Positions 43,291-60,781 of a DNA stretch of 64,000 nucleotides are shown here, one piece after another. The DNA lies in the NCBI RefSeq assembly GCF_030817415.1, contig NZ_JAUSZI010000002.1, forward strand, positions 1,488,001 to 1,552,000. The letters are read 5' to 3'. The notes under the pieces are model-generated. The model ran no database searches, was not told the DNA's origin, and saw nothing but the letters and a program-made list of their open reading frames with translations. The stretch comes from Streptomyces umbrinus. GTDB lineage: Bacteria > Actinomycetota > Actinomycetes > Streptomycetales > Streptomycetaceae. Position 1 is the stretch's first letter. Every line of letters begins with the position of its first letter. Both the position numbers and the translations under genes were made by a program.

Positions 43291-43294
43291 AAGA

Positions 43295-43330
43295 CAGTTC
43301 TCCGCGCCCCGAAAGGGGCGCGGAGAACTG
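43295..43330. terminator. Perfect 16-bp hairpin with GAAA loop, bidirectional terminator
   Basis: CAGTTCTCCGCGCCCC (43295-43310), loop GAAA and GGGGCGCGGAGAACTG (43315-43330). It is a paired copy of the intergenic palindrome family seen at 26.0-26.2 kb. It lies four bases after the terpene cyclase stop, between convergent genes. Confidence 0.85.
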
Positions 43331-43400
43331 CGCGACCAGCCACATCCAACCGCCGGCCAACAAACAAACAACAGTCGCCCCCCACCACCCGGCGGAGCGC

Positions 43401-45271: not shown

Positions 45272-45623
45272 TGAGTACCTCCTCAAGGAGCGCGAGGTCG
45301 GGCCCGCGACCGGCGTTCGACGCCGGGATGGGGTCACGGGCTTCAACGCGTCCTGCGTCCAGCAGATCGGCCAAGAGCACCGCGAGAATGTTGAAGGGCA
45401 ATCCGAGATGGGCGCCGAGTTCGGCCACCGACAGCGGATCGCGGCAGCGCCTGAGGATCTCCTCGTGCTCGTGCTGCAGGCCGGGGACGGCCGCGGCACG
45501 GGAGGTGATGAGGGTCGCCACGTCAAGGCTCGACGACGAACCGCCCGGTCCGCTGCGACCGCCCGTGAGGACGTAGTAGCGCTCGAGACCGGACGGGTCC
45601 GTGGGTCGGCGGGGACCACTCAT
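45252..45623 (-). CDS. cvnC: CvnC, DUF742 protein
   Basis: A 123-residue protein of the DUF742 family. A winged-helix-like core is seen in ILRRCRDPLSVAELGAHLGL followed by AVLLADLLDAGRVEARDP. The N-terminus RYYVLTGGRS is characteristic of the family. The start overlaps the cvnB stop (ATGA). It is a constant conservon member of unknown biochemical role; DNA binding has been considered because of the winged-helix pattern. Confidence 0.92.
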   Translation of the reverse strand: MSGPRRPTDPSGLERYYVLTGGRSGPGGSSSSLDVATLITSRAAAVPGLQHEHEEILRRCRDPLSVAELGAHLGLPFNILAVLLADLLDAGRVEARDPIPASNAGRGPDLALLEEVLSGLERL

Positions 45624-46030
45624 CCAGAGTGCTCCTCCAGGCGCGGAGTGGTGCCGAGGAGCTCACCCATCCTGCGGGCAAGGTCCCTCATCTGGTGGCC
45701 GAGCAGGCCCTGGTCGAGCCCCTCCCTGGCGAGTACTCCGAGGTACGTCTCCACGCCGGCGCGCACCACGAAGAGGTGACCGCCGTCGACCTCGATCATC
45801 GCGAGGCGCAGTTGCCCGGCGTATTTGGGGAACTGCTCGGCCACGGGCTGGGCCAGTGCCTGCAGGCCCGCCACCACTGCGGCGAAACGGTCCACGTCGT
45901 CGGGGTCGTCGGCGCCGTAGGAGGTGATGGCCTTGCCGTCGCTGGAGGCCACGAGGGCGAAGCGGATCTCCTGGATGCTCTCCACCAGATCGCGGAGCGC
46001 CCAGCTCACGTCGGTTCCCTGTTGCGTCAT
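45620..46030 (-). CDS. cvnB: CvnB, roadblock/LC7 protein
   Basis: A 136-residue roadblock/LC7-domain protein, recognised from LVASSDGKAITSYGADDPDD and the GGHLFVVRAGVETYLGVLA strand pair. In bacterial systems such proteins act as GTPase-activating or docking partners of small GTPases of the MglA type. It starts six bases after cvnA and overlaps cvnC by four bases. Confidence 0.92.
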   Translation of the reverse strand: MTQQGTDVSWALRDLVESIQEIRFALVASSDGKAITSYGADDPDDVDRFAAVVAGLQALAQPVAEQFPKYAGQLRLAMIEVDGGHLFVVRAGVETYLGVLAREGLDQGLLGHQMRDLARRMGELLGTTPRLEEHSG

Positions 46031-46035
46031 GTGGA

Positions 46036-47652
46036 CTAGTCGCTCTCTTCAGTGCGGTGCTCTGTGGACTCACGTCCGGCGGCCGGCTCGTGTCCGGCGG
46101 CCGGCTCACGTCCGGCCGTGGCAAAGGCGGCCAGGCCGGTGAAGGACTCGTCCGGCGGCACCGCGTGCGAGGCGGTGGCGGTGGACTCTTCCTCCCGTGC
46201 GACCGACTTGGGCCTCTCGGACTCGGCTCGCCTGCGGCGCCGGGGCAGACCGCCGGGAGTGGTGTCCCCGGTCTCCTCCGGCTCCTCGGCCGGACCCGGT
46301 TCCTCGGCCTGGGCCGAACCGGTGCCCGGCGCGGCGGAGACCGCGGCGGCAGGAGCCGGCGCCGTGACGGCGGCGGGCAACTGGCTGAAGTACTTGTGAG
46401 GTACCACGATGACCACTGAGGTGCCGAGCCACGGGGAGTCCGCGAAGGTGACCCTGATGCCGTACCGGCGGGCCAGGGCTCCCACCACGCGCAGACCGAG
46501 ATGGGCGTCCTCGGACACGCCACCGAGGCCGGGGCCGGGGGCCACACCCTCCAGCGACTGGAGGGCCTCCTGCTTCTTCTCCTCGTTGAGGCCCTTGCCG
46601 GAGTCCTGGATCTCGACGCCGACGCCGTTGGGCACCTCCTTGCCGGAGACGATCACCGGCTCGGTGGGCGGGGAGTAGCGTGCCGCGTTGTCCAGCAGAT
46701 GGGCGAAGATCAGCGTGAGGTGGTCCACCATGCCGCCGTCGACGCCGAGTTCGGGCAGGTGCTGAACCTGGACGCGGTCGAAGTCCTTGATCCGGCCGAT
46801 GCCGCCGCGCACCACGCTGAGCAGGCGCTGAGGCTCCTGCCACTGCCGGCCGGGCCGGTCCGAGCCGCCGAGTACGCCGATGCTCGCGGCCAGCGAGTCG
46901 GCGGGGCCGAGCTGCTGGTCGAGCTCCATCAGGCCCTGGGCGACGGAGGGCAGCCTGCCGTGTTCGCCCTGCATCTCGTGGAGCCGGCCGCGCAGCTTGC
47001 TGGTCAGAACGTGGATACGGCTGCCGATGCTGATGACGGCCTGTTCGGCGGAGGTGGAGCGGTTGAACTCCTGCTCCACGCCGATGAGCGCCGTCCTGAG
47101 CACCTTGCGCAGCTGGGCCTGCAGGTCGGCGCCGACCTCCGCGCACTGGTTGACGGAGGGCAGGACGTCGTCGATGGAGTCACCGGCCCGCAGCCGCTCC
47201 AGCGCCTCGGGCAGCTGCTGGTCGGCGAGCTGGGCGACGGCCGCGAGCTGCCGGTCGAGCTGCTCCTGCCAGGCCTGCGTCTGCTCGGCGATCCGCGCCT
47301 CGTAGGCCTTGGCCTGCTCGGCCAACTGCGCGTCGAACGTGGAGCGTTCGGCGGCGTACTTGCGCTCCAGACCGGCCACGTGCTGCTGCCACTGCTGGGA
47401 GTGTTCGGCCTGCGCGTTCCTGAACTCGCCGGCACTGCGGCGCAGCTGGAGCTGGGAGCGGACGAGAAGTCGTACGGAGATGGCGCTCGCAGCCGTCGCC
47501 GCGACGCCGGAGACGATCGCGGGTATCTGGGTCGAGTCGGGTCCGGCGACCGCGGCGGCGACGGTTCCAGCGCCTAAGGCCAGCGGCATCAGCCACCAGC
47601 TGTACCAGGCGGCCGGTGCCCGCGCCTCCGGTGGCGGAGTGGCAAGTTCCAT
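46036..47652 (-). CDS. cvnA: CvnA, membrane-bound sensor-kinase-like protein
   Basis: A 538-residue protein. Two membrane helices lie near the N-terminus (about 17-35 and 40-60). A long coiled coil follows (about 65-160, with repeated Gln/Glu/Ala such as QAEHSQQWQQHVAGLERKYA). An HATPase_c domain spans about 280-410 with N box LIFAHLLDNAARYSP, DSGKGL and GLRVVGALARRYG. The tail is acidic and Ala/Pro-rich, ending in short AAGHEPAAGRE repeats. The phosphorylatable His region of true kinases is not obvious. ATG 47652 follows GAAGGA; an ATG two codons earlier abuts that site. It heads a cvnABCD-P450 operon. Confidence 0.9.
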   Translation of the reverse strand: MELATPPPEARAPAAWYSWWLMPLALGAGTVAAAVAGPDSTQIPAIVSGVAATAASAISVRLLVRSQLQLRRSAGEFRNAQAEHSQQWQQHVAGLERKYAAERSTFDAQLAEQAKAYEARIAEQTQAWQEQLDRQLAAVAQLADQQLPEALERLRAGDSIDDVLPSVNQCAEVGADLQAQLRKVLRTALIGVEQEFNRSTSAEQAVISIGSRIHVLTSKLRGRLHEMQGEHGRLPSVAQGLMELDQQLGPADSLAASIGVLGGSDRPGRQWQEPQRLLSVVRGGIGRIKDFDRVQVQHLPELGVDGGMVDHLTLIFAHLLDNAARYSPPTEPVIVSGKEVPNGVGVEIQDSGKGLNEEKKQEALQSLEGVAPGPGLGGVSEDAHLGLRVVGALARRYGIRVTFADSPWLGTSVVIVVPHKYFSQLPAAVTAPAPAAAVSAAPGTGSAQAEEPGPAEEPEETGDTTPGGLPRRRRRAESERPKSVAREEESTATASHAVPPDESFTGLAAFATAGREPAAGHEPAAGRESTEHRTEESD

Positions 47653-48011
47653 CTGCATCCTTCGAAGCAACACGATCGAACAGGGGGGGAGAAGCTCGGG
47701 GCAGCACTCGTCGCGCGGTGATCCACCCCGCGACGGGCATGCGTGGACAGCGAGCGACAACCGATTGATGTCCCGTCAACTCGCCGCGCCTCAGGGAACC
47801 TTATCGGGTTTGATCTACCTCAGATCAACCTCTCCCGTCCGGTTCTGTGAAGCTTTCGTCACGCTCCGACCTGGCCTTACGGGTCGACAAATCCCTTAAC
47901 CCATCAGCCACACCGAAGGGCGGTGTGACGAAAACGGCGGGTACGACACGGATCGCGTGGGCATGCATGTCATGATCACAGCACCCGAGTTGATCTTGAG
48001 GAGACTCACCG
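47653..48011. other. Divergent regulatory interval between cvnA and a P450 gene
   Basis: About 360 bases without a gene, of lower GC in the middle (around 47780-47960). It must carry the promoters of the conservon operon and of the rightward P450 gene. I see no strong palindrome or repeat in it. Confidence 0.5.
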
Positions 48012-49475
48012 ATGAGCGGTGTATCAGGTTCTCCCGCCGCGGCACCGACCGCGCCCGGCCGCCTGCCCTTGATCGGACACGGACACCAACTGGCCCGACG
48101 TCCCCTGGAGTTCATGAACGCGCTGCGCGAGCAGGGCAGCGTCGTGAAGATCCTGATAGGCCCCACCGCCGCCTATGTGGTCACCGACCCGGCCGTCACC
48201 CGCCGAGTGCTGGTGACGGAGGTCGACGCGTTCGCGAAGGGCGGCAAGATCATCGACGCGCTGCGGGTGTTCTTCGGCGACGGCCTCGCCACGATCGCCG
48301 ACGGCGACCTGCACATGAAGCACCGGCGGCTGATGCAGCCGATGTTCAACAAGTCCCACATCGCCACCCGTGGCGACGTCATGATCAGCCACGTACGGAC
48401 GGCGACCGAGGCCTGGGCGGAGGGGGTCGCGCGTGACACGTACGAGGACATGAACGACCTGACGCTGTCGACCTTCCTCGTGGCACTCTTCGGCTCGGGC
48501 CTGCCGGGACACGTCGAGCAGGAGTTCCAGGGCCTCATGCCGGAGATCATGCGTGGCACGATCCGGCAGACCATCCTGCCCGGCTGGGTGACGAAGCTGC
48601 CCCTGCCCGCGAACCGCGCGCACGAGCGGCGGGTCGCCCGGCTGCGAGTCCTCATCGACCAGGCCATAGACCACCACCGAGCCCAGTTGGCGTCCGCGGA
48701 GCAGCCCGCGCCCCCGCCCGGCTGCCCCGCCCATCAGGACGGCGCGCAGGCCGAGGGCACCGAGTCACGGACCGGCCTCTTCTCCACTCTTCTCACGGCC
48801 GACGACCCCGAGACGGGCCCTCTCTCGCGCCAACAGCTCCAGGACGAGGCGATCACCCTCCTCACGGGCGCGATCGAGACCACCGGGACAACCCTGGCAT
48901 GGACCCTGTACGAGATCAGCCGCAACCCGGGGATCGAGCGGAAGCTGCACGCCGAACTCGACGCCGTCTGCGGTGAACGCCCGCTGCGCCAGGAGGACCT
49001 GGGCTCCCTGCCGTACATGCGCAGTGTCCTCAAGGAGGCCATGCGCATGTACGGACCCGCCTGGCTCGTCACCCGGACGACCACGCGACCGGTCGTCCTC
49101 GACGGAGTCCCGATCCCCGAGGGCGCGGACGTCGTATACAGCCCGTACGTCCATCAGCACGACCCCGAGGTCTATGCGGACCCCGCGGCCTTCGACCCGG
49201 GCCGTTGGGAGCCCGAGCGCGCCAAGAGCATCAACCGCTCCTCGTTCCTCGCTTTCGGGGACGGCCGGCGCAAGTGCATCGGCGAGGAGTTCGCCTGGAC
49301 CGAACTCCTCATCGTCCTGGCCACCGTCGTCCAACGCTGGCGGCTGACCCTCGCCTCCGCTCCCCCGCGCCCCCAGGCCATCGTCACGGTCAAGCCCGAC
49401 AAGCTCTCGATGACACCGCAGCCGCGGGTCCCGACGAAGGCCCAGGAGCACGAGGAGCAACCCGCTCCTTCCTGA
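48012..49475 (+). CDS. Cytochrome P450, complete motif set
   Basis: A 487-residue P450 with all usual motifs: I-helix LLTGAIETTGTTLAW, K-helix KEAMRMYGP with intact ExxR, and heme loop FGDGRRKCIGEEFA. The overall wording resembles Streptomyces P450s that oxidise sesquiterpenes (CYP170 and relatives) rather than small CYP105-type enzymes. An insertion near residues 225-255 (PPPGCPAHQDGAQAE) is unusual and probably lies on a surface loop. It is divergent from the conservon and converges on the CCR gene. Possible substrates are the terpene from 42259-43290 or the lipid of the next operon. Confidence 0.85.
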   Translation: MSGVSGSPAAAPTAPGRLPLIGHGHQLARRPLEFMNALREQGSVVKILIGPTAAYVVTDPAVTRRVLVTEVDAFAKGGKIIDALRVFFGDGLATIADGDLHMKHRRLMQPMFNKSHIATRGDVMISHVRTATEAWAEGVARDTYEDMNDLTLSTFLVALFGSGLPGHVEQEFQGLMPEIMRGTIRQTILPGWVTKLPLPANRAHERRVARLRVLIDQAIDHHRAQLASAEQPAPPPGCPAHQDGAQAEGTESRTGLFSTLLTADDPETGPLSRQQLQDEAITLLTGAIETTGTTLAWTLYEISRNPGIERKLHAELDAVCGERPLRQEDLGSLPYMRSVLKEAMRMYGPAWLVTRTTTRPVVLDGVPIPEGADVVYSPYVHQHDPEVYADPAAFDPGRWEPERAKSINRSSFLAFGDGRRKCIGEEFAWTELLIVLATVVQRWRLTLASAPPRPQAIVTVKPDKLSMTPQPRVPTKAQEHEEQPAPS

Positions 49476-49481
49476 TGACGG

Positions 49482-50783
49482 TCACATCCCGGTGAGGCGC
49501 TCCCTCCGCTCGGCATCCACGACGCCCAGCCCGGGCCCGGGAGCCAGCGCGAGCACCCCCACCTTGCCCAGGTGGGCGTTGTTCTGGACCAGGCGGGCCG
49601 CCTCTGCCGTGTCGGTGAGGGGGTAGGTCTCGGTGAGGGCGGGAGTGAGGTGACCGAGGTCGAGGAGGCGGCCGACGGCGGCCTGTTCGTGGAGGTTGGA
49701 ACCGTGGCTGCCGATGACGCGCTTGAGGCGCATCCAGAGGTACCGGTTGTCGAACTCGTGCTGGTAGCCGGTGCTGGAGCCGCACGTCACCACCGCCCCG
49801 CCGCGGCGGACAACGAAGACCGAGACGCCGAAGGTGGCCCGGCCGACGTGCTCGAAGACGATGTGCGGGTCCTCCCCGGTCGCGGCCCGGACCAGCTTGC
49901 CGAGCCGCTTGCCGACCAGGGCGGGATCGGCGGGCGGCTCGCTGCCGCTGAGCCCGATCTCCTCCCGGTTGATCACGTGGTGGCAGCCCAGCCGGCGGGC
50001 GTACTCCGCCTTCTGCTCGCTGCTGACGACGCCGACGGCTATGCCCCCGCCGTTGCGGACCAGTTGGACCGCGTACGCGCCGAGGCCGCCCGCCGCTCCC
50101 CAGATCAGCACCACGTCGCCCTGGGTCATCCGGGCACCCCGGTCACTGACCAGCATGCGGTACGCCGTGCCCGCGCACAGCGGGTTCGAGGCGGCCTCCT
50201 CCCAGGTCAAGTGAGCGGGTTTGGGGAGGAGTTGGCTGGTCCTGGCCACGGCGTAGTGGGCCAGTCCTCCGTAGTTGGTCTCGAAGCCCCACGCCAGCAT
50301 GCCGGTGCCCAGCATGCCGTCGGCGTGGGTCGCCGGGTCCTCCTCGTCGACGTACACCGGGCTCACCACGACCGGGTCGCCGACCCGCCATCTGCGCACA
50401 CCCGAACCCGTGCGCACGACGACGCCGGAGGCGTCCGAGCCGATGACGTGGAAGGGCTGGTCGTGCCGGGCCGCCCAGCGGTCCTGGCGGCCGAAGTGCT
50501 TCAGGAAGCTGAAGGTCGGGATGGGTTCGAACATCGCCGACCAGACGGTGTTGTAGTTGATGCCGCTGGCCATGACGGCCACCAGCACCTCGTTCGGGGC
50601 GAGTTCGGGCATCGGCACCGCGCCGATGTGGATGGATTTCCGTACGTCCTTGTCGGCGACTCCGGTGAAGCTGTCGACGTCCTCCGCGCGCAGGTGGGCG
50701 GCGGTGAAGCGGTCGGGTGGGGGCAGGTGCTCCAGTTCGCTGCGGGCGGCTCCCGCGACGACTGCCTCGGCCAGGGCATCCAT
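49482..50783 (-). CDS. ccr: Crotonyl-CoA carboxylase/reductase
   Basis: A 433-residue zinc-less medium-chain dehydrogenase/reductase. The NADPH motif is WGAAGGLGAYAVQL. The four residues reported to bind CO2 in the Kitasatospora enzyme appear conserved: Asn78 (GINYN), Phe167-Glu168 (GFETN) and His360 (GSHGSN). It should therefore carboxylate and reduce 2-enoyl-CoA to an alkylmalonyl-CoA extender, not just reduce. The ATG follows GGAGG. It is the last gene of the operon with FAAL, PKS and esterase genes, 88 bases after the esterase. In this setting it would feed the branched extender to the PKS. Confidence 0.9.
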   Translation of the reverse strand: MDALAEAVVAGAARSELEHLPPPDRFTAAHLRAEDVDSFTGVADKDVRKSIHIGAVPMPELAPNEVLVAVMASGINYNTVWSAMFEPIPTFSFLKHFGRQDRWAARHDQPFHVIGSDASGVVVRTGSGVRRWRVGDPVVVSPVYVDEEDPATHADGMLGTGMLAWGFETNYGGLAHYAVARTSQLLPKPAHLTWEEAASNPLCAGTAYRMLVSDRGARMTQGDVVLIWGAAGGLGAYAVQLVRNGGGIAVGVVSSEQKAEYARRLGCHHVINREEIGLSGSEPPADPALVGKRLGKLVRAATGEDPHIVFEHVGRATFGVSVFVVRRGGAVVTCGSSTGYQHEFDNRYLWMRLKRVIGSHGSNLHEQAAVGRLLDLGHLTPALTETYPLTDTAEAARLVQNNAHLGKVGVLALAPGPGLGVVDAERRERLTGM

Positions 50784-50871
50784 GGTGGTTCCTCCTTGAG
50801 GGGATCGACTCGGGTCAGAGGTCCGCTCGGGCCGGGGCCCGGTCAGGGGGCGGCTCAGGCCGGCGCCCGGG

Positions 50872-51852
50872 TCAGCTCAGGCCGAGGCCCGCCGCGAGCA
50901 TCGGCCACGACGCCTTGAACTCCTGTCGCCAGTACGGCCACGCGTGTGCTCCGCCGTTGTAGAAGTGCACCTGGGCCGGGATGCCCAAGGTGTCCAACCG
51001 ATCGGTGAACCGGTGCGCCTGGGACCAGAGCGCGCCTTCGAGCACCGCGCCTTCGAGGTTGTCGAAGTCACCGCCCGCCAGGCCGCTCCCCTGGGAGATG
51101 TACAGCTTGGTGCCCTTGAGGTTGGCGGCCTGCGCGGAGGGGTTGTGCCGGTTCCAGTTGTCCCGGTTGAGCAGCGGGCTGCCCCAGAGCGTCAGCGGCA
51201 GCAGTTGTTCCCGGGCGACGATCGCGTTGAGCACGGTCGGCATGCCGAACGCCGTGGTGTCGAGGATCCCGCTGTACGAGGCGGCGGCCGTGAAGGTCCC
51301 GGGGTGCCGTGCGGCGAAGGCCAGGGCCCCGTAACCGCCGGTGGAGACACCGGCGACCACACGTTTCGTCCCCGCCCGGAACTTCTGCTGCAGCACCCCC
51401 ATCAACTCGTCGACCTGGAACGTCTCGTAGTCCGGTGCGCCGGCGCTTCCGTAGTTCCACCAGTCGGTGGGGATACCGGTGGGGCCGGACGACGGCATCA
51501 CGGTGATGACGTCCTGGCCGGCGAGGAAGTCGACGACGTCCGTCTCCCTCGTCCAGGACGTGTAGTCGTCGTGCGCGCCCTGGAGCAGATAGAGCACGGG
51601 CCAGGTGCGGTCGGGCTGCGCGGCGTAGCCGGTCGGCAGGACCACCCGTACGGGCAGGGACGCGCCGACCGCCGGGGAGGCGACCGTGAGGTCGACGGTT
51701 CGGGCGTCGAGCCACTTCTGGGCGACGATCGTGGCGCCCGCGGCCACCGCGGCGGCGGGAGCGGCCGTCGCGGGTGGGGCGTTGAGCCCGACTCCCGCGC
51801 CGAGCAGGGCCGTTGTCACCGCGAGCGCGGCGCATCTCCGCTTACGAGTCAT
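50872..51852 (-). CDS. Secreted antigen-85-like esterase/acyltransferase
   Basis: A 326-residue protein with a signal peptide (RKRRCAALAVTTALLGAGVG, cut near ATAAPA). The mature part is an alpha/beta hydrolase of the esterase-D/antigen-85 group: VLYLLQGAHDDYTSW, VMPSSGPTGIPTDWW, FQVDELMGVL, the nucleophile in GVSTGGYGA, and GGAHAWPYWRQEF with the catalytic His. The same blocks, in the same order, occur in mycobacterial mycolyltransferases. It lies 13 bases after the PKS stop. I infer that it moves the PKS product onto a cell-surface acceptor, or hydrolyses such an ester. Confidence 0.85.
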   Translation of the reverse strand: MTRKRRCAALAVTTALLGAGVGLNAPPATAAPAAAVAAGATIVAQKWLDARTVDLTVASPAVGASLPVRVVLPTGYAAQPDRTWPVLYLLQGAHDDYTSWTRETDVVDFLAGQDVITVMPSSGPTGIPTDWWNYGSAGAPDYETFQVDELMGVLQQKFRAGTKRVVAGVSTGGYGALAFAARHPGTFTAAASYSGILDTTAFGMPTVLNAIVAREQLLPLTLWGSPLLNRDNWNRHNPSAQAANLKGTKLYISQGSGLAGGDFDNLEGAVLEGALWSQAHRFTDRLDTLGIPAQVHFYNGGAHAWPYWRQEFKASWPMLAAGLGLS

Positions 51853-51865
51853 GGGGCAAGTCCCT

Positions 51866-54800
51866 TCAGGAGTCCCGCAGATCGCGTGTCAGCAGTGCGG
51901 CCAGCGTGTCGACGACCGGGGGGTCGAGCAGCGACAGATGGTGGCCGGGCAACGGAACGACGGTCAGGTCGGCGCAGTGCGCGTCCCAGCCGAGCGTCGC
52001 GTCGCCGCGTTCGTAACGGGGGTCGTGGACGGTGTGCGGGGCGGTCTCGCTCGCCCGGTAGAGCAGGGTGCGGCCCGCGTAACCGCCGGGCCGGTGGCAC
52101 TCGCCGCTGCGCAGGTCCAGGTAGGAGGTCCGCTGGTGTTCGAGGACCGCTTCCGGCAGTTCGACGGTGTCCTGCAGCACCTTGACGACGAGGTCGATCC
52201 GTCCCGCGTCGTCGAGCCCGGCGAGTTCGTCGTACGGCAGGTCGGGCGCGGCGCCGTAGGTGCGTTCCACGTACGCGGCGAAGTCCCGGAAGTGCCGCAG
52301 GGCCAGGTCGGTCGTGGTGAGGCTGGTGGGCAGAGGCAGTACCGAGTCGAGCAGGACCAGGGCGGCGACTCTGCCGTGCGGGGCGAGCCGCCGGGCCGCC
52401 TCCTGCGCGACCAGACCGCCGTACGACCAACCGCCAACGACCCAGGGGCCTTTGGGCAGCTCCCCTCGTACTCTCCGGGCGAACTCCTCGGCCCGTCCCG
52501 GCACATCGTCGGGGTCGGGCTGCCGGTCGAAGCCGTACACCGGGCGGTCGCCGTCCAGGCAGTGCGCCAACCGGGCGTAGACCTCGGCGGATCCGCCTGC
52601 GGCGTGGGCCAGGAAGAGGGGGGTGCCTGGGCCGGTTCCCGGGAACCGGCGGAGAGGGGTCGGGGTGTCGGGCCGGGTTGCGGATCCTCCCCGTACGAGC
52701 GCGTCGGCGGCCGAACTCACCGCCGTCCCCGGCTCTTTCGGATCGCCGGGCGTCGCCTGCCCTCCCGGAGCACCGGCCGTCTCCGCCTCTCCCCCGGTCT
52801 CCAGCAGCTCGGCCACGCCCCTCAGCGTCCCGCGTCTGAGCAGTACTCCGGGCTCCACCTCGATGTCGAACTCCCGCTGTACCGCGGCCCGTATCCGCAC
52901 GGCCGTGAGGGAGTCCAGACCGAGGTCGGTCAACGGGGTGTCGGGGTCGAGACGTTCGGGGCTGTAGCCCATGACCGCGGCCACGCACAGCCGGAGCCGT
53001 TCGAGAGGACGGGCGGCCGGGTCGAGAGGCGCTGACCGGGGCGGCTCCTCGGGCGGTTCCTCCCCCGCCCAGAAGCGACGGTGCCGCCAGCGGGGCGACG
53101 GGACGTCCACGATGCGGCCCTCGGGATGCAGTCCCTCCCGCGGCTGGGCCACCCGTACGCCGTGGACGAGCAGCGTGGCCAGCGAGGTACGGAAGGCGAG
53201 CGCGTCGTCGGTGTCGCGCCGCAGGGTGGGAACGATCAGCGCGTCCCCGGCGCCGGCATCGCGCAGGGTGTCGGTCAGCGGGTGCAACTGCGTGGCGTGC
53301 GGGGCGACTTCGACGAAGACGCGGTGTCCGTCATCTGCTGCGGCGCGCACCGCCTGTGCGAAGCGGACGGGGTTGCGCAGGTTGGCCGCCCAGTACTCCG
53401 TGTCGCAGGGCACGGTCTCGCGGGGATCGCCGAGCGCGGTGGAGTAGCGGCGGCAGCGGGGTGCGGAGTGCCGGACCTCGCCCAGTTCCCACGCGAACTC
53501 CGGGAGCAGTGGCTCGACTTCGGGCGAGTGGCCCGCCCCCGACACACCCAGCGAACGGGCGAAGCCGCCGTTCTCGGTCACCCGGGCGACCAGCCCGGCC
53601 ACGTCCTCGGCCGAGCCCGTGACCACACACTGCGCGGGAGAGGAATGCACGGCCACTTCCAGCGTGCCGAACTCCCTCGCCAGCACAGGAATTTCGGCCG
53701 CCGGTAGCTCCACGACCGCCATGGCTCCGCCGGTCAGCCGGTCCAGCAGCCGGGAGCGTACGGCGACGATCCGGGCGCCGGTGGCCTGGTCCAGCGCGCC
53801 CGACACGACGGCCGCCGCGATCTCTCCCAGGGAGTGGCCGATGACGGCGTCGGGTTCGAGGCCGTACGAGCGCCACAGTTCGGCGAGGGCGACCTGGATG
53901 CCGTAGAGCACGGGCATGACCGCGGCGGGGGTCGAGAGGTCGGCGTCGGGTCGGAGTCCGGCGCGCAGGGAGAGCCCCGCGTGGTAGCGGACGAGTGGTT
54001 CCAGCCGGTCGACGGCGGCCGCGAACACCGGTTCCGTGGCGAGGAGTTGGCGGCCCATACCGGGCCACTGGGAGCCGTAGCCGGAGAAGACCCACACCAT
54101 GGGTCCAGGCCCGCCCGGCCGGTCCTCCCCCGTGACCAGCCGCGGGGAGGGGTCGCCCGCCGCGAGACGGCCGAGTGCGGTGCGGGTCTCGGCGCGGTCG
54201 CGGGTGACGAGGGCCGCGCGATGGCGGCCACGGCCGGTGCGCCCGGCGAGGGTGCGGGCGAGTTCGGCGTCGCGTACGCGTCGGCTGTCGGGGGTGTCCA
54301 GCCAGTCCGCCAGTTCGCCGGCGTAGGCGCGTACGCGCTCCTTGGTCGGCCCGTCGAGCAGAAGCAGCGCGGGGCGTCCGGCGGGGCCCTTCGCCCGGGC
54401 GGCCGGGCGGTGTTCGGCGAGGACGACGTGGGCGTTCGTACCGCCGAAGCCGAAGGCCGAGACGCCCGCGGTGGCCGTGCCCGAGTAGCGGGGCCAGGGT
54501 TCGGGTGAGCCGACCACGCGCAGGCCGAGCGCGTCGAGGTCGGCATGCGGGCCCGGGCGGTTGAAGTGCAGGTGGGCGGGGATCTCGCCGTGGTGCAGGG
54601 CGAGCACGGTCTTGATCAGGCCCGCGATACCGGCGGCCGCTTCCAGGTGGCCGAGGTTCGTCTTGGCGGAGCCGATCAGGAGGGGCTGGTCCAGGGAGCG
54701 ACCCCGGCCGAGCACGGCGCCGAGGGCGCTCGCCTCGATGGGGTCGCCGAGGGCGGTGCCGGTGCCGTGCGCCTCCACGTAGTCCACGGTCGTCGGGGCG

Positions 54801-56011
54801 GTGTGCGCCTCGGCGAGGAGGGCGCACTGGGCCTCGGAGTTGGGGGCCGTCAGTCCGTTGGAACGGCCGTCGGAGTTGACGGCCGTCGCGTGGATCACCG
54901 CCAGGACGCGGTCGCCGTCGCGTTCGGCGTCAGGGAGCCGTTTCAGTACGACGACTCCGCAGCCCTCGCCGCGTACGATCCCGTCGGCCGCGGCGTCGAA
55001 GGCCTTGCAGCGGCCGTCCGGGGCGAGGGCGCCCGCGCGCTGGAAACCGAGGGTGACGGCGGGGGTCAGGAGCAGGTTCACCCCGGCGGCGAGTGCCGTG
55101 TCGCTCTCGCCCGTCACCAGGCTGCGTACGGCGTGGTGCACCGCGACCAGCGACGACGAGCACGCCGTGTCGACGGACAGGCTGGGGCCGCGCAGGTCGA
55201 GGGCGTACGACAGGCGGCCCGCGGCGATGCTCATGGACGCGCCGGTGGCCGTCCAGGCGTCCACGGCTCGGAGGTCGGCGGTCGTCAGGTGCGCGTATTC
55301 GTTGCCACTGATGCCCACGAAGACACCGGTGCGGGTGCCCGCGAGCGTGGGTGCGGCGAGGGCCGCGTGGTCCAGGGCCTCCCGGGTGACTTCGAGGAGC
55401 ATGCGGTGTTGCGGGTCCATGGCGGTCGCCTCGTGGGCGGGTATGCCGAAGAACTCGGCGTCGAAACCGGCGATGTCGTCGAGGCCGCCGAGAAAGGCGC
55501 CGTGCCGGTTCACGTCGTCCGGCAGGCGTTCCGGATCCCGGACGAAGGGGTCCCAGCGGCCGGGCGGAAGTGTGCCTACCGCGTCGCGGCCTTCGGTGAG
55601 GAGTTGCCAGTATTCGTCCGGGGACGTGACGCCGCCGGGGAATCGGCAGCCGACGCCGATGACGGCGACTGCGGGGGTCGGTTCGGTAGTTCGGTTGGTG
55701 CCGGCCCGCCGTGGCTGATCGCGCCCACGCGGCGGAGCCGCATATGTCACAGCCCCGCGCCCCTTATGGGGCCGGGTCTCCTCCAGTCTTCTCACCAGTG
55801 TGTCGATCGTCGGGGCCTCCCACAGCAGTGTGTCCGGGAGGCGTCTTCCGGCCAGTTCGCTCAGGTCGGATGTGAGGGCCACCGCGTCTCGGGAGGTCAG
55901 GCCGACCTCCGCCAGGGGCCTGTCGTCGGGGAGTTGGCCCGGGCTGACCCCGTACCAGTCCTGGAGCCGCCCGGCGACCAGCTCGCGGATCTCCCTGCGC
56001 GACACGCTCAT
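51866..56011 (-). CDS. Pks13-like polyketide synthase, ACP-KS-AT-ACP-TE
   Basis: A 1381-residue single-module synthase. The N-terminal ACP (1-80) has its attachment Ser40 in GLTSRD. The KS (about 113-540) has Cys284 in DTACSSS and the two His motifs EAHGTGTALGDP and KTNLGHLEAAAG. The AT (about 640-950) has GHSLGE and an unusual GAGHSP where HAFH or YASH is normal. A second ACP (about 1010-1085) has GLDSLT. The thioesterase (about 1120-1381) has GGWSYGG and PGHHLSLL. No ketoreductase is present. This order is that of mycobacterial Pks13, which condenses two fatty acyl units. Its start overlaps the FAAL stop by four bases. Confidence 0.92.
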   Translation of the reverse strand: MSVSRREIRELVAGRLQDWYGVSPGQLPDDRPLAEVGLTSRDAVALTSDLSELAGRRLPDTLLWEAPTIDTLVRRLEETRPHKGRGAVTYAAPPRGRDQPRRAGTNRTTEPTPAVAVIGVGCRFPGGVTSPDEYWQLLTEGRDAVGTLPPGRWDPFVRDPERLPDDVNRHGAFLGGLDDIAGFDAEFFGIPAHEATAMDPQHRMLLEVTREALDHAALAAPTLAGTRTGVFVGISGNEYAHLTTADLRAVDAWTATGASMSIAAGRLSYALDLRGPSLSVDTACSSSLVAVHHAVRSLVTGESDTALAAGVNLLLTPAVTLGFQRAGALAPDGRCKAFDAAADGIVRGEGCGVVVLKRLPDAERDGDRVLAVIHATAVNSDGRSNGLTAPNSEAQCALLAEAHTAPTTVDYVEAHGTGTALGDPIEASALGAVLGRGRSLDQPLLIGSAKTNLGHLEAAAGIAGLIKTVLALHHGEIPAHLHFNRPGPHADLDALGLRVVGSPEPWPRYSGTATAGVSAFGFGGTNAHVVLAEHRPAARAKGPAGRPALLLLDGPTKERVRAYAGELADWLDTPDSRRVRDAELARTLAGRTGRGRHRAALVTRDRAETRTALGRLAAGDPSPRLVTGEDRPGGPGPMVWVFSGYGSQWPGMGRQLLATEPVFAAAVDRLEPLVRYHAGLSLRAGLRPDADLSTPAAVMPVLYGIQVALAELWRSYGLEPDAVIGHSLGEIAAAVVSGALDQATGARIVAVRSRLLDRLTGGAMAVVELPAAEIPVLAREFGTLEVAVHSSPAQCVVTGSAEDVAGLVARVTENGGFARSLGVSGAGHSPEVEPLLPEFAWELGEVRHSAPRCRRYSTALGDPRETVPCDTEYWAANLRNPVRFAQAVRAAADDGHRVFVEVAPHATQLHPLTDTLRDAGAGDALIVPTLRRDTDDALAFRTSLATLLVHGVRVAQPREGLHPEGRIVDVPSPRWRHRRFWAGEEPPEEPPRSAPLDPAARPLERLRLCVAAVMGYSPERLDPDTPLTDLGLDSLTAVRIRAAVQREFDIEVEPGVLLRRGTLRGVAELLETGGEAETAGAPGGQATPGDPKEPGTAVSSAADALVRGGSATRPDTPTPLRRFPGTGPGTPLFLAHAAGGSAEVYARLAHCLDGDRPVYGFDRQPDPDDVPGRAEEFARRVRGELPKGPWVVGGWSYGGLVAQEAARRLAPHGRVAALVLLDSVLPLPTSLTTTDLALRHFRDFAAYVERTYGAAPDLPYDELAGLDDAGRIDLVVKVLQDTVELPEAVLEHQRTSYLDLRSGECHRPGGYAGRTLLYRASETAPHTVHDPRYERGDATLGWDAHCADLTVVPLPGHHLSLLDPPVVDTLAALLTRDLRDS

Positions 56012-57741
56012 CGTGGCCCGAACCCGCCGTCGAGGAAGCGCGCCCGGGCTGCCGCGCGGGACACCTTGCCGCTGCTCGTGCGGGGGACGGAGCCCGGCGG
56101 TACGAGCCGCAGTGAGCCGAGGCGCAGCCCGTGGCGGGCGGAGATCGCGGCGCGCACGACGCGTTCGGCGTTCCGCGAGTCCTTGGGCGTCGGGTCGGTG
56201 TCGCGCCGGTGTTCCGCGACCACGACGAGGTCCTCGCCCACGTCATCCGCCCGGGTCACTCCGAACGCGGCGAGGTGGTCCCGGCGGATCAGGGCCACTG
56301 CCGTCTGTACGGTCTCCTCGATGTCCTGGGGGTAGTGGTTGCGCCCGTCCACGATGAGTACGTCCTTGAGGCGGCCGGTGACGAGAAGCCGCCCTTCGTG
56401 CAGGGCGCCGAGGTCGCCGGTGCGCAGCCAGTCCTCGGCCGCGCCGAAGCCGAAGGTCTCGGCCGTGAGTCCGGCGCGCTTCCAGTAGCCGAGGCCGATG
56501 TTGGGGCCGCGCAACTGGATCTCGCCGACCCGCCCTTGCGGCAGTACGACGCCGTCCCGGCCGACGATCCGCAGCTCCTGCCCGACGGGTGTCCCGCACG
56601 GGACGAGGACGGCCCCCGCCTCGTCCGACGTCTCCTCGATCCGCCCTTCCGTGAGCGCGCCGGCGTCGCAGACGACGGCCGAGGACGGTTCGTCCCGGGA
56701 GCTCGCGGTCACGAACACGGTGGCCTCGGCCAGGCCGTATGCCGGACAGTGCGCGGCCGGGTCGAGCCCGGCGGGCGCGAAGGTCGCGTGGAAGCGGTCC
56801 ACCGTCCCGGCGCGCACCGGTTCGCTGCCGTTGATGAGCACCCGTACGCGGTCCAGGCGGAGTTCGTCGACGAGCCCCGGGTCGGTGCGGGCCACGCAGT
56901 AGTCGTACGCGAAGTTCGGGGCGGCGCTGACGGTGCCCTCGTACGAGCCGAGGAGGCGCAGCCAGCGGGCGGGGTCCTGGAGGAAGGCGGAGGGGTCCAT
57001 GAGGACGGAAGGGAAGCCGCCCACGACGGGTGCGGCGATGCTGAGGACGAGGCCCATGTCGTGGAAGAGGGGCAGCCAGCCGACCGTGGTGGCGGCGTCC
57101 GGGTCGGCGATGAACGCCTGGATGGCCTGGCGGGCGTTGGCGACGACGTTGGCGTGGCTGATCATCACGCCGGCCGGGATGCGGGTGGAGCCGGAGGTGT
57201 ACTGGAGGTACGCGATGTCGTCCGGCTCGGCGGCGCCCGACGGTTCGCCCGAATCGATGAATCCACCGCGCTGGACGGGGAGTTGGTCCACAGGTACGAC
57301 GGGAACCTCCGGCAGGCCGCGTTCGCGGATGAACTCGCCCATCGCACGGGCCGTTTCGGAGTCGCTGAGCAGACAGGCCGGTTCGCAGTCGGCCAGCACG
57401 GCCGCCAGTCTCCCTTCGTGGCCGGGGAGTTGCGGACCGAAGAGAGGTACGGCGATGACGCGGGCGTACAGGCAGCCGAGGAAGCCCGCCGCGTAGTCGA
57501 GCCCCTGGGGAAGCACGAGGGCGGCGCGTTCGCCGGGGGAGGCGATCTGGACGAGCCGGTCGGCGACGGCCCTGGCCCGGGCGTCGAGGGCGCGCCATCC
57601 GAGGGCCCGGTGCACTCCGGTGGGGGCGCTGTCGGGGAAGTCGACGTGGCTGAAGGCGCGTTGCTGCGGACGGTGTCTGGCCCAGTGCCTCAGATGGTCC
57701 GTGAGTGAGGCGGATTCGGCGGCGGGCCGGACGGAGGTCAT
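56008..57741 (-). CDS. Fatty acyl-AMP ligase (FadD32-like)
   Basis: A 577-residue adenylating enzyme. Motifs are LQYTSGSTRIPAGVMISHAN (P-loop region in the form used by FAALs), WLPLFHDMGL, YGLAEATVFV, and the C-terminal GRLKDVLIVDGRNHYPQDIE. The extra segment typical of FAALs between the two main domains is consistent with the length. It activates a fatty acid as acyl-AMP and passes it to an ACP without CoA. Being coupled to the PKS gene, its target is most likely the N-terminal ACP. ATG 57741 is eight bases after GGAG. It is the first gene of the operon. Confidence 0.92.
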   Translation of the reverse strand: MTSVRPAAESASLTDHLRHWARHRPQQRAFSHVDFPDSAPTGVHRALGWRALDARARAVADRLVQIASPGERAALVLPQGLDYAAGFLGCLYARVIAVPLFGPQLPGHEGRLAAVLADCEPACLLSDSETARAMGEFIRERGLPEVPVVPVDQLPVQRGGFIDSGEPSGAAEPDDIAYLQYTSGSTRIPAGVMISHANVVANARQAIQAFIADPDAATTVGWLPLFHDMGLVLSIAAPVVGGFPSVLMDPSAFLQDPARWLRLLGSYEGTVSAAPNFAYDYCVARTDPGLVDELRLDRVRVLINGSEPVRAGTVDRFHATFAPAGLDPAAHCPAYGLAEATVFVTASSRDEPSSAVVCDAGALTEGRIEETSDEAGAVLVPCGTPVGQELRIVGRDGVVLPQGRVGEIQLRGPNIGLGYWKRAGLTAETFGFGAAEDWLRTGDLGALHEGRLLVTGRLKDVLIVDGRNHYPQDIEETVQTAVALIRRDHLAAFGVTRADDVGEDLVVVAEHRRDTDPTPKDSRNAERVVRAAISARHGLRLGSLRLVPPGSVPRTSSGKVSRAAARARFLDGGFGPR

Positions 57742-57906: not shown

Positions 57907-57994
57907 AAGGCGTGCCGTCGATTCCATGCCGTGGGCCAGAGCCCGGGCGGCGCTCTCCCGCCGACAATCCGTGCGACGGCGGAAGGAGCGTCTT

Positions 57995-59425
57995 GTGGGA
58001 CGTACACGGCTGTTCGCGCTGTTCTCCCTGCTCACACTGACCGGGTTCATCACGACGCTCGACAACACGGTCATCAATGTGGCCCTGCCGACCGTGCAGC
58101 GCGAACTGAGTCTGACGGTGCCGGACCTGGAGTGGGTGGCCGCCAGCTATGTGCTCAGTTTCGGCGCGCTGCTGCTGCCCGGCGGGCGGCTGACCGATCT
58201 GTTCGGACGCAGATCCGTGCTGGCGGCCGGGATCCTGGTCTTCACGGCGGCGTCGGCGGCGGCCGCCCTCGCGGACAGCGGGGGCATGTTGATCGCAGCC
58301 CGTACGGTGCAGGGGGTCGGGGCCGCGATGGTCATCCCGGCCTCGCTCGCCGTCATCGCGGTCGATCTGCCCGCGCGGCTGCGCGCGACGGCCGTGGGCC
58401 TGTGGACCGCGGCGCTGGCCGTGGCGCTGGCGCTGGGACCCGTGGTGGGCGGCTTCGTCACCCAACGGTGGGGCTGGGGCTGGGTGTTCGCGCTCAACGT
58501 CCCGTTCGGGCTGATCGCGCTGCTGCTGATGCCGGCCGTACCCGGCCGGTCCGCGCCTCGGCGAGGTGGTCTCGATCTGCCCGGTGTGCTGCTGTCCGTG
58601 CTCGCGCTCTATCTGCTCACCTACGGTCTCGTGCGCGGGCAGGAGCACGGGTTCGGCACCGCGCCCGTACCGCTGTGCCTGGGCGTTTCGGCGGTCGCCG
58701 CCTGTGTGTTCGTCGTCGTGGAGGCGCGGACCGCGCGCCCGCTCGTCGAACTGCGGCTCCTGCGCGACCGGTTCCTCACCGGTGGGATCGCCGCGCAGGT
58801 GCTGTGGGGCATCGGCGTCAACGGGGTGTTCTTCTTCACGGCCCTCTATCTCCAGCGGGTGCTCGGCTTCTCGCCGACGGGGGCGGGGCTGGCGTTTCTG
58901 CCGCTGGCGGGTGCGCTGCTGCTGGGGACGCCGGTGGCCGAGCGGGCGGCCCGCGCACTGGGCGCGCATGTCTCGATCGCGGGTGGCCTCTGCCTGGTGG
59001 CGGTCGGTCTGCTGTACGTCTCGGGCGCGGGTGCGCGGGCCGGCTTCTGGGATCTGCAGCCGGGGCTGCTCCTGATCGGCTGGGGTTCCGCGTTCACCAC
59101 TCCCCTGACCGTGCGCTGTCTCGCGCAGGTTCCGGAGACGGGGATGGGAATGGCGACCGGTCTGGTGAGCGCGGCCCGCGAGGTCTCCGGTGTGTTCGGG
59201 GTGGTCCTGGTGGGCGTGGTGCTCACCCGGCGTGAAAGCTCCGAGCTGCGTTCCGGCACCGATCCGCGCGACGCGTTCCTGGAGGGCTACGACCTCGGGC
59301 TCCGGCTCGCGGCGTGCTGCGTACTCGCGGGTGCGTTCGTGACGCTGGTGACGCTGCGCCGTCGTGGGCGTCATCGGCGGGTGGTGGCGCGGAGCAGAAG
59401 CAGGATTCCCCTTGTCATGAAGTGA
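57995..59425 (+). CDS. MFS exporter, EmrB/QacA (14-helix) type
   Basis: A 476-residue membrane protein with about fourteen helices of the drug:H+ antiporter-2 group. Motif A is GGRLTDLFGRRSVL, motif D1 is LDNTVINVALPTV, and motif C appears as ALALGPVVGGFV. The GTG at 57995 has AAGGAG seven bases upstream and precedes the first helix. It is divergent from the FAAL-PKS operon with about 250 bases between, so it may export the operon's product or a precursor. That link is inferred from position and shared repeats only. Confidence 0.88.
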   Translation: MGRTRLFALFSLLTLTGFITTLDNTVINVALPTVQRELSLTVPDLEWVAASYVLSFGALLLPGGRLTDLFGRRSVLAAGILVFTAASAAAALADSGGMLIAARTVQGVGAAMVIPASLAVIAVDLPARLRATAVGLWTAALAVALALGPVVGGFVTQRWGWGWVFALNVPFGLIALLLMPAVPGRSAPRRGGLDLPGVLLSVLALYLLTYGLVRGQEHGFGTAPVPLCLGVSAVAACVFVVVEARTARPLVELRLLRDRFLTGGIAAQVLWGIGVNGVFFFTALYLQRVLGFSPTGAGLAFLPLAGALLLGTPVAERAARALGAHVSIAGGLCLVAVGLLYVSGAGARAGFWDLQPGLLLIGWGSAFTTPLTVRCLAQVPETGMGMATGLVSAAREVSGVFGVVLVGVVLTRRESSELRSGTDPRDAFLEGYDLGLRLAACCVLAGAFVTLVTLRRRGRHRRVVARSRSRIPLVMK

Positions 59426-59429: not shown

Positions 59430-59527
59430 CCCCCGGTGCATGTCTGTCAGTCGCCGATGAAGCTGGGCAGAATTCTTGCGGGTATCGTCACCGTGCCCCA
59501 CTTCCCGTGCGCAGAAGGAGCCGCTGC

Positions 59528-60781
59528 GTGACCGGATTCCGCATGCTGGAGAAGATCGAGGCCACGAACGCCACGGCGAGGGCCGAGGAGGCCCAGGGCC
59601 CGTTCAAGGCGTTCCCTTCGGGTCTGCACGACCATCTCAGACCGTTCTTCGACGACATCACCGAAGAGGTCGTACGGGCGATCAGAACCGAGATCCCGGA
59701 GTACGCGCGGCCGACGGACGACACGTACATGCAGGTCGTGCATCAGGGCGTGGAGCATGCGCTGCAGGGGTTCCTGGAGCGGATGGCGAAGCCGGACACC
59801 GACTGGCAGCCGGTGACGGCGACGTATCAGCGCATCGGCCGGGGCGAGGCGGACGAGGGACGCAGTCTCGACGCGTTCCAGTCGGCGCTGCGGCTCGGCG
59901 CGCGGGTGACATGGCGCCGGATCAACGCGCTGGTCGACGCCGATCTGCTGCCGCGTCATGTGCTGGCCGCGTTCGGGGAGGCGCTGTTCCTGCACCTGGA
60001 CGAGATGGCGGCCGCGACGACGGCCGGGTACACCGAGGCGCGGCTGCACGCGGCCGGTGAACTGCAGCAGCGGCGTTCGCGGTTGATCGATCTGCTGATC
60101 GTGGACCCGCCCGCGTCGGTCGCGGCCATCACGGATCTCGCGCACACCGCGCAGTGGCCCGTGCCCCGCTCGCTGGCCGTGGTCGTCATCGATCACGGGG
60201 CGCAGGCCGGGGCGTCCCAACCGCCCATCGTGCCACCGGAGTTCCTGGCACGGTTCGACGTGCGCCCGGCCGTGCTGGTGGTGCCCGATCCGGAGGGCCC
60301 GGGCAGGGCGCGTGCCGTCGCCGGTGCGCTGCAGGGCCTACGGGCCGTCATGGGGCCGAGCGTCGCGCTCCAGGAGGGGGCGAGGTCGCTGCGGTGGGCG
60401 GCGGAGGCGCTCGATCTGGCCCGGCGGGGCGTGCTGCCGGACACGCAGATGGTGCGCTGCCGGGACCATCTGGCCACGCTGATGCTGTTCCGCGACGAGG
60501 CGCTGGTGGAGGCGATGGCCGACCGGCATCTGCGCCCCCTGGACACCATCCGGCTGCCTCAGCGCGAGCGCCTCGCGGAGACACTTCTCAGCTGGCTCGA
60601 GTGCGGCCACAACGCGAGCGAGGTGGCCGCCCGTCTCGCCGTCCATCCGCAGACGGTCCGCTATCGCATGCGTCAGCTCGACGAGTTGTTCGGCGACCGG
60701 CTGCACGACCCCACCACCCAGTTCGAGATGCAGTTGGCGCTGCGGGCGCTCAAGCTCCGGAGGGCGGCCCGGGCACGGTGA
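59528..60781 (+). CDS. PucR/CdaR-family transcriptional regulator
   Basis: A 417-residue regulator. The N-terminal 170 residues form the helical RsbT co-antagonist-like sensor domain seen in actinobacterial PucR proteins. A GGDEF-like degenerate domain occupies the middle. The C-terminal helix-turn-helix of the HTH_30 type is GHNASEVAARLAVHPQTVRY followed by RMRQLDELFGDRL. GTG 59528 follows GAAGGAG. It comes 100 bases after the MFS gene in the same direction and is the only regulator next to the lipid operon. TGTCAG-type repeats near both promoters are candidate sites. Confidence 0.87.
   Translation: MTGFRMLEKIEATNATARAEEAQGPFKAFPSGLHDHLRPFFDDITEEVVRAIRTEIPEYARPTDDTYMQVVHQGVEHALQGFLERMAKPDTDWQPVTATYQRIGRGEADEGRSLDAFQSALRLGARVTWRRINALVDADLLPRHVLAAFGEALFLHLDEMAAATTAGYTEARLHAAGELQQRRSRLIDLLIVDPPASVAAITDLAHTAQWPVPRSLAVVVIDHGAQAGASQPPIVPPEFLARFDVRPAVLVVPDPEGPGRARAVAGALQGLRAVMGPSVALQEGARSLRWAAEALDLARRGVLPDTQMVRCRDHLATLMLFRDEALVEAMADRHLRPLDTIRLPQRERLAETLLSWLECGHNASEVAARLAVHPQTVRYRMRQLDELFGDRLHDPTTQFEMQLALRALKLRRAARAR

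What the first reader, a model, noticed from the sequence alone, without database searches (positions are those of the whole stretch)
49482..57741. Pks13/FadD32/Ag85-like lipid condensation cassette with CCR in Streptomyces
Seen: an operon encodes a fatty acyl-AMP ligase, an ACP-KS-AT-ACP-TE synthase (stop and start overlapping), a secreted antigen-85-like esterase 13 bases on, and crotonyl-CoA carboxylase/reductase. Known: in mycobacteria FadD32 loads the N-terminal ACP of Pks13, which condenses the chain with a carboxylated acyl-CoA made with AccD4, and Ag85 moves the product to trehalose or arabinogalactan. Inference: here CCR supplies an alkylmalonyl-CoA in place of AccD4, giving an alpha-branched beta-keto fatty acid that the esterase transfers outside the cell. 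Streptomyces are not known to make mycolates, so the product would be a new mycolate-like lipid or lipid ester. No ketoreductase is in the set.
Basis: partly seen in the sequence, partly recalled or inferred. Interest (0 to 1): 0.95.

Follow-up and report, generated by a model that had tools for sequence, protein, structure and literature searches.

The report
Streptomyces mycolate-type locus using CCR
The condensing enzyme of this Streptomyces operon groups in gene trees with the one that joins the two halves of mycolic acids in mycobacteria, but the operon has a CinF-like carboxylase/reductase gene instead of the AccD4-like carboxylase gene of its sister loci, so it is predicted to make, and likely to attach outside the cell, a mycolate-like branched lipid that Streptomyces are not known to have.

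Summary
The four genes are present as described: FAAL, ACP-KS-AT-ACP-TE synthase, predicted-secreted esterase of mycoloyltransferase fold, and CCR. In KS trees the synthase joins Pks13, apart from 17 other type I KSs. The commonest Streptomyces relatives carry AccD-FAAL-Pks13-like-esterase-PucR-cutinase: the five protein families of the mycobacterial AccD4-Pks13-FadD32-cutinase-Ag85 locus; their AccDs group with AccD4. Of 68 complete named loci, 49 have AccD, 14 CCR, 5 neither, none both. AccD-bearing loci of the window's type sit near the base of its branch, so CCR most likely replaced AccD. All 16 sampled CCRs of this type have the Ala/Gly pair of the octenoyl-CoA enzyme CinF; 12 of 14 other CCRs have Ile/Phe. 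The AT motif is GAGH/AAGH (Pks13: GASH/GAGH), not YASH/HAFH; loci of this type without either gene have V/T/I-AGH. [quoted passage not shown] Chain lengths, acceptor, reduction and the esterase's role are untested. The curated Pks13 and FadD32 cut-offs are not met, and the esterase's tree is inconclusive. Nine searches of an open paper library listed nothing on such a Streptomyces locus.

The parts
56008..57741 (-). Fatty acyl-AMP ligase (FAAL, FadD32-like), 577 aa, P0001; predicted to load a fatty acid on the N-terminal ACP
   Evidence: Pfam AMP-binding; NCBIfam PRK05850 517 bits, FadD32 495 bits, both below cut-off; FAAL tree
51866..56011 (-). Pks13-like synthase ACP-KS-AT-ACP-TE, 1381 aa, P0002. 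N-ACP GLTSRDAV (Ser40), KS Cys284, AT Ser727 with GAGH 825-828, C-ACP Ser1034, TE Ser1196/Asp1222/His1358 (positions by count)
   Evidence: Pfam; PDB best match Pks13 870 bits vs MAS 677 and DEBS 610; KS trees; motifs aligned with two Streptomyces relatives and three Pks13
50872..51852 (-). Alpha/beta-hydrolase of mycoloyltransferase fold, 326 aa, P0003; predicted secreted from its N-terminal signal-like stretch (no signal-peptide program run); triad Ser170-Glu272-His303
   Evidence: PDB by sequence: C. glutamicum PS1 148 bits, Cmt1 115, Ag85A 75; residues invariant in 10 aligned relatives; AF2 model pLDDT 76, Foldseek top 6sx4 MytA 4.6e-22
49482..50783 (-). Crotonyl-CoA carboxylase/reductase of the CinF (2-octenoyl-CoA) type, 433 aa, P0004; Ala and Gly at CinF positions 163 and 362
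   Evidence: TIGR01751 538 bits over cut-off; PDB best 4a0s CinF 636 bits vs Ccr 458; CCR tree and residue table
57926..59425 (+). MFS transporter, divergent from the operon; candidate exporter (accessory, inferred)
   Evidence: Pfam MFS_1; beside the operon in 13 of 14 complete CCR loci
59507..60781 (+). PucR-type regulator; a homologue also lies in the AccD-type loci (accessory, inferred)
   Evidence: Pfam HTH_30; maps

Best explanation
The operon is likely a mycolate-type condensation locus: its synthase groups with Pks13 in KS trees, and a CinF-like CCR most likely replaced the AccD carboxylase of its sister loci and would supply the alkylmalonyl-CoA. Predicted steps: the FAAL makes a fatty acyl-AMP and loads it on the N-terminal ACP of the synthase. 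CCR reductively carboxylates a medium- or long-chain 2-enoyl-CoA to an alkylmalonyl-CoA, which the AT takes through its GAGH-type pocket to the second ACP. [quoted passage not shown] The TE releases it or passes it to an alcohol acceptor, the MFS protein may export it, and the mycoloyltransferase-fold enzyme would pass it to a final acceptor outside the cell. The product would resemble an unreduced corynomycolate. Shown by calls: gene order, domains, trees, motifs, conservation, and that AccD and CCR were not found together in any of 80 named loci. Inferred: substrates, chain lengths, acceptor, export and transfer.
For: KS: Streptomyces synthases plus five Pks13 (and L203, L204 first KS) form one side of a branch, 100/96, against 17 other type I KSs and two long-branched rows; SH-aLRT 100 with those two left out. 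PDB best match Pks13 870 bits. AccD: locus AccDs plus AccD4 95/92, apart from the other carboxylase clades. Same five protein families in mycolate-type loci L117/L118 and the Streptomyces AccD-type loci. 68 complete loci: 49 AccD, 14 CCR, 5 neither, 0 both, checked by tblastn. AccD-bearing relatives L141/L142 near the base of the window's branch (FAAL 98/89 with L055; KS 94/79). CCR: 16 of 16 window-type and 5 of 5 large-type rows have Ala/Gly. AT: GAGH/AAGH in 21 of 21 CCR rows (18 distinct) and 2 of 2 AccD loci of the window's type, GAGH in 74 of 74 AccD-type rows with an AT hit (70 distinct; 4 of 78 listed had none), GASH/GAGH in 5 of 5 Pks13, HAFH/YASH in 15 of 18 outgroup ATs. Fold of the esterase.
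Against: No biochemistry or lipid data. Curated Pks13 and FadD32 cut-offs are not met. The window locus has neither AccD nor a cutinase, both part of the mycobacterial set. The esterase tree does not make it a specific sister of Ag85. Five distinct loci of the window's type have neither AccD nor CCR (L133, L137, L143, L175, and S. specialis seen as L055 and L174), so the pairing is not obligatory. In the large-type Streptomyces loci that have CCR it lies on the opposite strand. The AT-motif link rests on 4 changes on the tree (2 on starred branches), too few for a sign test. PucR regulator and MFS pump also fit a secondary-metabolite cluster.
Confidence: 0.66

Rival explanations
1. Secreted small lipid, not an envelope lipid: the same chemistry makes a diffusible alpha-alkyl beta-oxo acid, its ketone or a lactone (signal or antibiotic); the MFS protein exports it and the esterase trims or detoxifies it.
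For: MFS divergent from the operon in 13 of 14 complete CCR loci and a PucR regulator nearby in many; patchy distribution: 6 of 199 Streptomyces genomes in the FAAL-first sample carry the window's type. Free beta-oxo acids lose CO2 to ketones (PMC2568869, passages).
Against: The enzyme's closest folds are transferases of long-chain mycolic esters; it stays with the synthase in both AccD- and CCR-type loci, and AccD-type loci add a cutinase.
Confidence: 0.27
2. Ordinary short-extender PKS: the AT uses ethyl- or methylmalonyl-CoA, and CCR only adds ethylmalonyl-CoA.
For: CCRs of this family include crotonyl-CoA enzymes; five distinct related loci lack either gene and have V/T/I-AGH AT motifs, which I recall as typical of ethylmalonyl ATs.
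Against: The genome already has a housekeeping-type CCR (G000:C2:2736082-2737344); the window CCR has the CinF residues and its AT the Pks13-like GAGH motif.
Confidence: 0.12
3. CCR is only a neighbour and serves another pathway; the synthase draws on a housekeeping carboxylase.
For: 88-base gap to the esterase; CCR missing from five distinct related loci.
Against: CCR follows the esterase on the same strand in the 14 complete CCR loci mapped (in L132 and L139 a desaturase gene on the other strand lies between), in varied flanks, and is absent from the loci that have AccD.
Confidence: 0.07

Closest known systems
Mycolic acid condensation locus Rv3799c-Rv3804c (accD4-pks13-fadD32-Rv3802c-Ag85D-Ag85A)
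   Same: FAAL, ACP-KS-AT-ACP-TE synthase of the same KS clade and a mycoloyltransferase-fold enzyme; the sister Streptomyces loci also have AccD of the AccD4 clade and a cutinase. Gene list from PMC2625445 (passages).
   Different: The window has no AccD and no cutinase; CCR is there instead; gene order differs; found in Streptomyces, with an MFS gene and a PucR regulator.
CinF, 2-octenoyl-CoA carboxylase/reductase (PDB 4a0s)
   Same: Best PDB match, 636 bits; same Ala/Gly at positions 163/362; same clade apart from housekeeping Ccr.
   Different: CinF serves the cinnabaramide pathway (recalled); here the partner is a Pks13-like condensing enzyme.
C. glutamicum mycoloyltransferases MytA/PS1 and Cmt1
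   Same: Fold and Ser-Glu-His triad.
   Different: 29% identity over the fold alignment; Ag85-type enzymes stand apart in the esterase tree (PS1 and Cmt1 were not in it); activity untested.

Membership tests
Pks13 (NF040607) | Curated score cut-off of 2100 bits | tested here: not met
   1197.5 bits
Pks13 (NF040607) | Domain order ACP-KS-AT-ACP-TE | tested here: met
   same families in L117
Pks13 (NF040607) | KS groups with Pks13, not other type I KSs | tested here: met
   100/96; SH-aLRT 100 without two long rows
Pks13 (NF040607) | AT accepts a 2-carboxyacyl-CoA | not testable with these tools
   Only the GA[GS]H-type motif is shared
FadD32 (NF038339) | Curated score cut-off of 975 bits | tested here: not met
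   494.7 bits; FadD32 falls outside the Streptomyces FAAL clade
Mycoloyltransferase (Ag85/PS1) | Fold and Ser-Glu-His triad | tested here: met
Mycoloyltransferase (Ag85/PS1) | Specific kinship with Ag85 | tested here: inconclusive
   other Streptomyces esterases fall on the same side as Ag85; A with B only 85/78
Mycoloyltransferase (Ag85/PS1) | Transfers an acyl chain to sugar or wall | not testable with these tools
   No assay
Mycolate condensation locus | AccD4-clade carboxylase in the locus | tested here: not met
   Absent in the window; present in sister loci
Mycolate condensation locus | Cutinase in the locus | tested here: not met
   0 of 14 complete CCR loci; 46 of 48 gene-called AccD loci
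Crotonyl-CoA carboxylase/reductase (TIGR01751) | Curated cut-off of 378.55 bits | tested here: met
   538 bits
Long-chain (CinF-type) CCR | Ala163/Gly362 pocket (role recalled) | tested here: met

The most novel reading that the evidence does not exclude
Streptomyces, and some other actinomycetes outside the mycolate group, carry a second branch of mycolate chemistry: a Pks13-type machine that builds alpha-alkyl, beta-oxo lipids for the outside of the cell, in which the biotin-dependent carboxylase was swapped for a reductive carboxylase (CCR), with the AT pocket tracking the supply gene.
Probability: 0.45. Interest if true: 0.92.

Novelty: new variant of a known kind. Interest (0 to 1): 0.8.

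Why it matters
Mycolic acids are a hallmark of Mycobacteriales. An AccD4/Pks13/FadD32/Ag85-like set in Streptomyces, whose KS and AccD share clades with the mycobacterial ones, says the condensation module is older or more mobile than mycolates themselves, and gives a safe soil genus in which to study it. The AccD-to-CCR exchange would be a clean case of two unrelated chemistries supplying the same kind of building block, with the AT motif as a readable marker. It predicts a concrete new lipid class that simple mutants and mass spectrometry can confirm or refute.

Tried and rejected
Esterase tree as proof of Ag85 kinship: rejected, weak support and mixed groups. CO2-binding residues of CCR: my numbering against 6na3 did not match the recalled set, so no claim is made. 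Sign test of AT motif against supply gene: only 4 changes, no power. P450 at 48012-49475 as core: rejected, a relative of 60% identity or more is present in 3 of 14 complete CCR loci. Plasmid search with the esterase: 67 records, none at 60% identity or more. Fold of the unnamed 550-aa protein: model too poor (pLDDT 38), not searched. The gene caller missed AccD in L155 (one search counts 48 AccD and 6 neither); tblastn corrects this to 49 and 5. In some searches my class lists put L174 and L175 among the AccD-type loci by number range; both are window-type loci without CCR or AccD, so the AccD-type count is 74 of 74, not 74 of 76. The outgroup list held L097, which is the window genome's own large-type locus, so 15 of 18, not of 19. 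The context labels (13 rows in bucket 'A') mixed in loci without context and are not used. Rows dropped: 168 KS hits were found and 66 put in the tree; 202 esterase relatives were confirmed and only the best 80 returned, of which 12 lacked complete context. Some loci were fetched twice, unnamed and named; distinct counts are. Literature: ten search calls were answered; nine of them were on this question (one search was on CCR), and none of the nine listed a paper on such a locus in Streptomyces; only part of each listing was opened. Papers seen as passages only: PMC2625445, PMC6117356, PMC6164871, PMC11649247, PMC2568869, PMC5936774; the rest as search listings with abstract starts.
Full report
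WHAT IS THERE. FAAL 56008-57741 and synthase 51866-56011 overlap by 4 bases; the esterase 50872-51852 starts 13 bases after the synthase stop; CCR 49482-50783 follows after 88 bases. Pfam confirms the domains, with two ACP stretches. Flanks: a divergent MFS gene, then a PucR regulator; a P450 gene converges on CCR; beyond it lie a histidine kinase, Roadblock, ATP-binding and P450 gene group and a terpene synthase.

SISTER LOCI. A FAAL search in 199 Streptomyces genomes gave 33 genomes at E <= 1e-120. Stretches around the hits show three layouts. A, the window's: MFS, FAAL, synthase, esterase, CCR; 6 genomes, one of them (G121, L055) without CCR. B, the commonest: AccD, FAAL, synthase, esterase, PucR, cutinase, usually with a convergent 550-aa protein; AccD in 22 of 22 loci that hold FAAL and synthase, cutinase in 20 of the 20 not cut by a contig end; one further hit, L084, is an AccD with a FAAL cut by its contig end. 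C: a larger synthase of about 2200 aa (one, L079, tested: KR and DH domains); 4 of 7 such stretches, some truncated, show a CCR, on the other strand. Pfam confirms Carboxyl_trans and Cutinase in layout B. The named set holds 202 confirmed relatives of the esterase; the best 80 were returned and bear Streptomyces names except two labelled Actinobacteria bacterium. Of the 80, 68 are complete; by tblastn 49 have AccD, 14 CCR, 5 neither, none both; among the 12 incomplete ones 1 has AccD, 4 CCR, 7 neither. Cutinase occurs in 46 of the 48 gene-called complete AccD loci (not in L141 and L142) and in 0 of 14 CCR loci.

COMPARISON WITH MYCOLATE LOCI. That matches the published Rv3799c-Rv3804c list (PMC2625445, passages), which that paper reports for mycobacteria, corynebacteria, nocardia and rhodococci. 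In the KS tree of 66 rows all Streptomyces layouts, five Pks13, L203 and the first KS of L204 stand together (100/96) against 17 other KSs, some from mycobacterial PKSs; two long rows fell outside both, and leaving them out keeps the split (SH-aLRT 100). Layouts A and B are sisters (99/94). The AccD tree puts the AccDs of A, B and C layouts with AccD4 (95/92) and apart from other carboxylases; three further rows that I had labelled 'other' also fall in that group, and AccD4 itself is not one clade there. The FAAL tree agrees on A with B (100/99) and puts L055, L141 and L142 at the base of A (98/89), beside a clade of the remaining A rows (99/99) that includes CCR-bearing loci and loci that have neither gene. 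L141 and L142 are A-type loci with AccD and no CCR. The simplest history is an ancestral AccD, replaced by CCR within branch A, with some loci ending without either. Class-wide, related FAALs occur in other families (81 of 296 genomes at E <= 1e-120, FadD32s included), and C-type loci there carry AccD (L203, L239, L246), CCR (L245) or neither in the stretch (L240, L243, L244, L248).

CCR. The best PDB match is CinF, 636 bits, against 458 for Ccr. In the tree all 16 A rows form one clade (100/99; two of the rows are identical), and with CinF, the C CCRs and two others they stand apart from housekeeping Ccr (100/100). The window genome keeps its own housekeeping-type CCR. At CinF positions 163 and 362, 16 of 16 A and 5 of 5 C CCRs have Ala and Gly; 12 of 14 other CCRs and both Ccr structures have Ile and Phe; the remaining two have Ala/Ala and Ile/Ala. 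The role of these residues in chain length is recalled; that a V350G change in AntE widens its range is in PMC6117356 and PMC6164871 (passages), but I did not align AntE position 350.

AT MOTIF. At the YASH/HAFH position (motifs: PMC6164871, passages) the window has GAGH. CCR loci of layout A: GAGH or AAGH in 21 of 21 rows, 18 distinct. A loci with AccD: AAGH in 2 of 2. B loci: GAGH in all 74 with an AT hit, 70 distinct; 4 of the 78 listed had no AT hit. C loci are more mixed: GAGH or AAGH in 5 of 5 with CCR, GAAH or GAGH in 3 of 3 with AccD, and GGAH, AAGH or AAAH in the 6 of 7 others with an AT hit. Pks13: GASH or GAGH in 5 of 5. Outgroup: HAFH or YASH in 15 of 18; a nineteenth listed row, L097 (AAGH), is the window genome's own C locus. 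In Pks13 these are residues 906-909 by count from the alignment; residues 905-907 partly occlude access to the AT serine, where a carboxypalmitoyl chain has been seen (PMC11649247, passages). A loci with neither gene have V, T or I first: 6 of 6 rows, 5 distinct loci. On the KS tree both traits need 4 changes and the pairs agree, 2 on starred branches, too few for significance. One such genome, G121, shows only a housekeeping-type CCR at E <= 1e-60.

ESTERASE. Sequence and fold both rank corynebacterial mycoloyltransferases first, then Ag85. Its tree is less clear: A with B 85/78, with other Streptomyces esterases on the same side as Ag85. So it has the fold and the triad; activity and specific kinship are open.

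MECHANISM AND LIMITS. [quoted passage not shown] Mycobacteria without their reductase still put such beta-oxo chains on the wall and lose some as ketones (PMC2568869, passages), so a missing ketoreductase does not block the model. Chain length, acceptor, export and transfer are untested.

VERDICT. It fails the curated Pks13 and FadD32 cut-offs and lacks AccD and cutinase, so it is filed as a new variant that works like the mycolate module, not as a member of it.

Noticed in passing
G000:C2:1787000-1806500 (L087, L051), outside the window: The same genome has a second, larger FAAL-synthase locus (about 2200 aa) with its own CinF-type CCR, esterase and a gene like one I read as a glycosyltransferase (not tested by Pfam).
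   Followed up: partly
G000:C2:10608000-10627500 (L204), outside the window: A third FAAL beside a short protein whose KS falls in the Pks13-side group on a long branch.
   Followed up: no
L061:14157-15809 and orthologues: A 550-aa protein without a Pfam match, with an invariant GHSLGG motif, is conserved next to the cutinase in AccD-type loci.
   Followed up: partly
L053:12566-13513, and L055, L132, L139, L174: Some window-type loci contain a fatty-acid desaturase gene beside the esterase.
   Followed up: no
window 42259-47760: Histidine kinase, Roadblock, ATP-binding protein and P450 gene group beside a terpene synthase; seen next to the operon mainly in its closest relatives.
   Followed up: no
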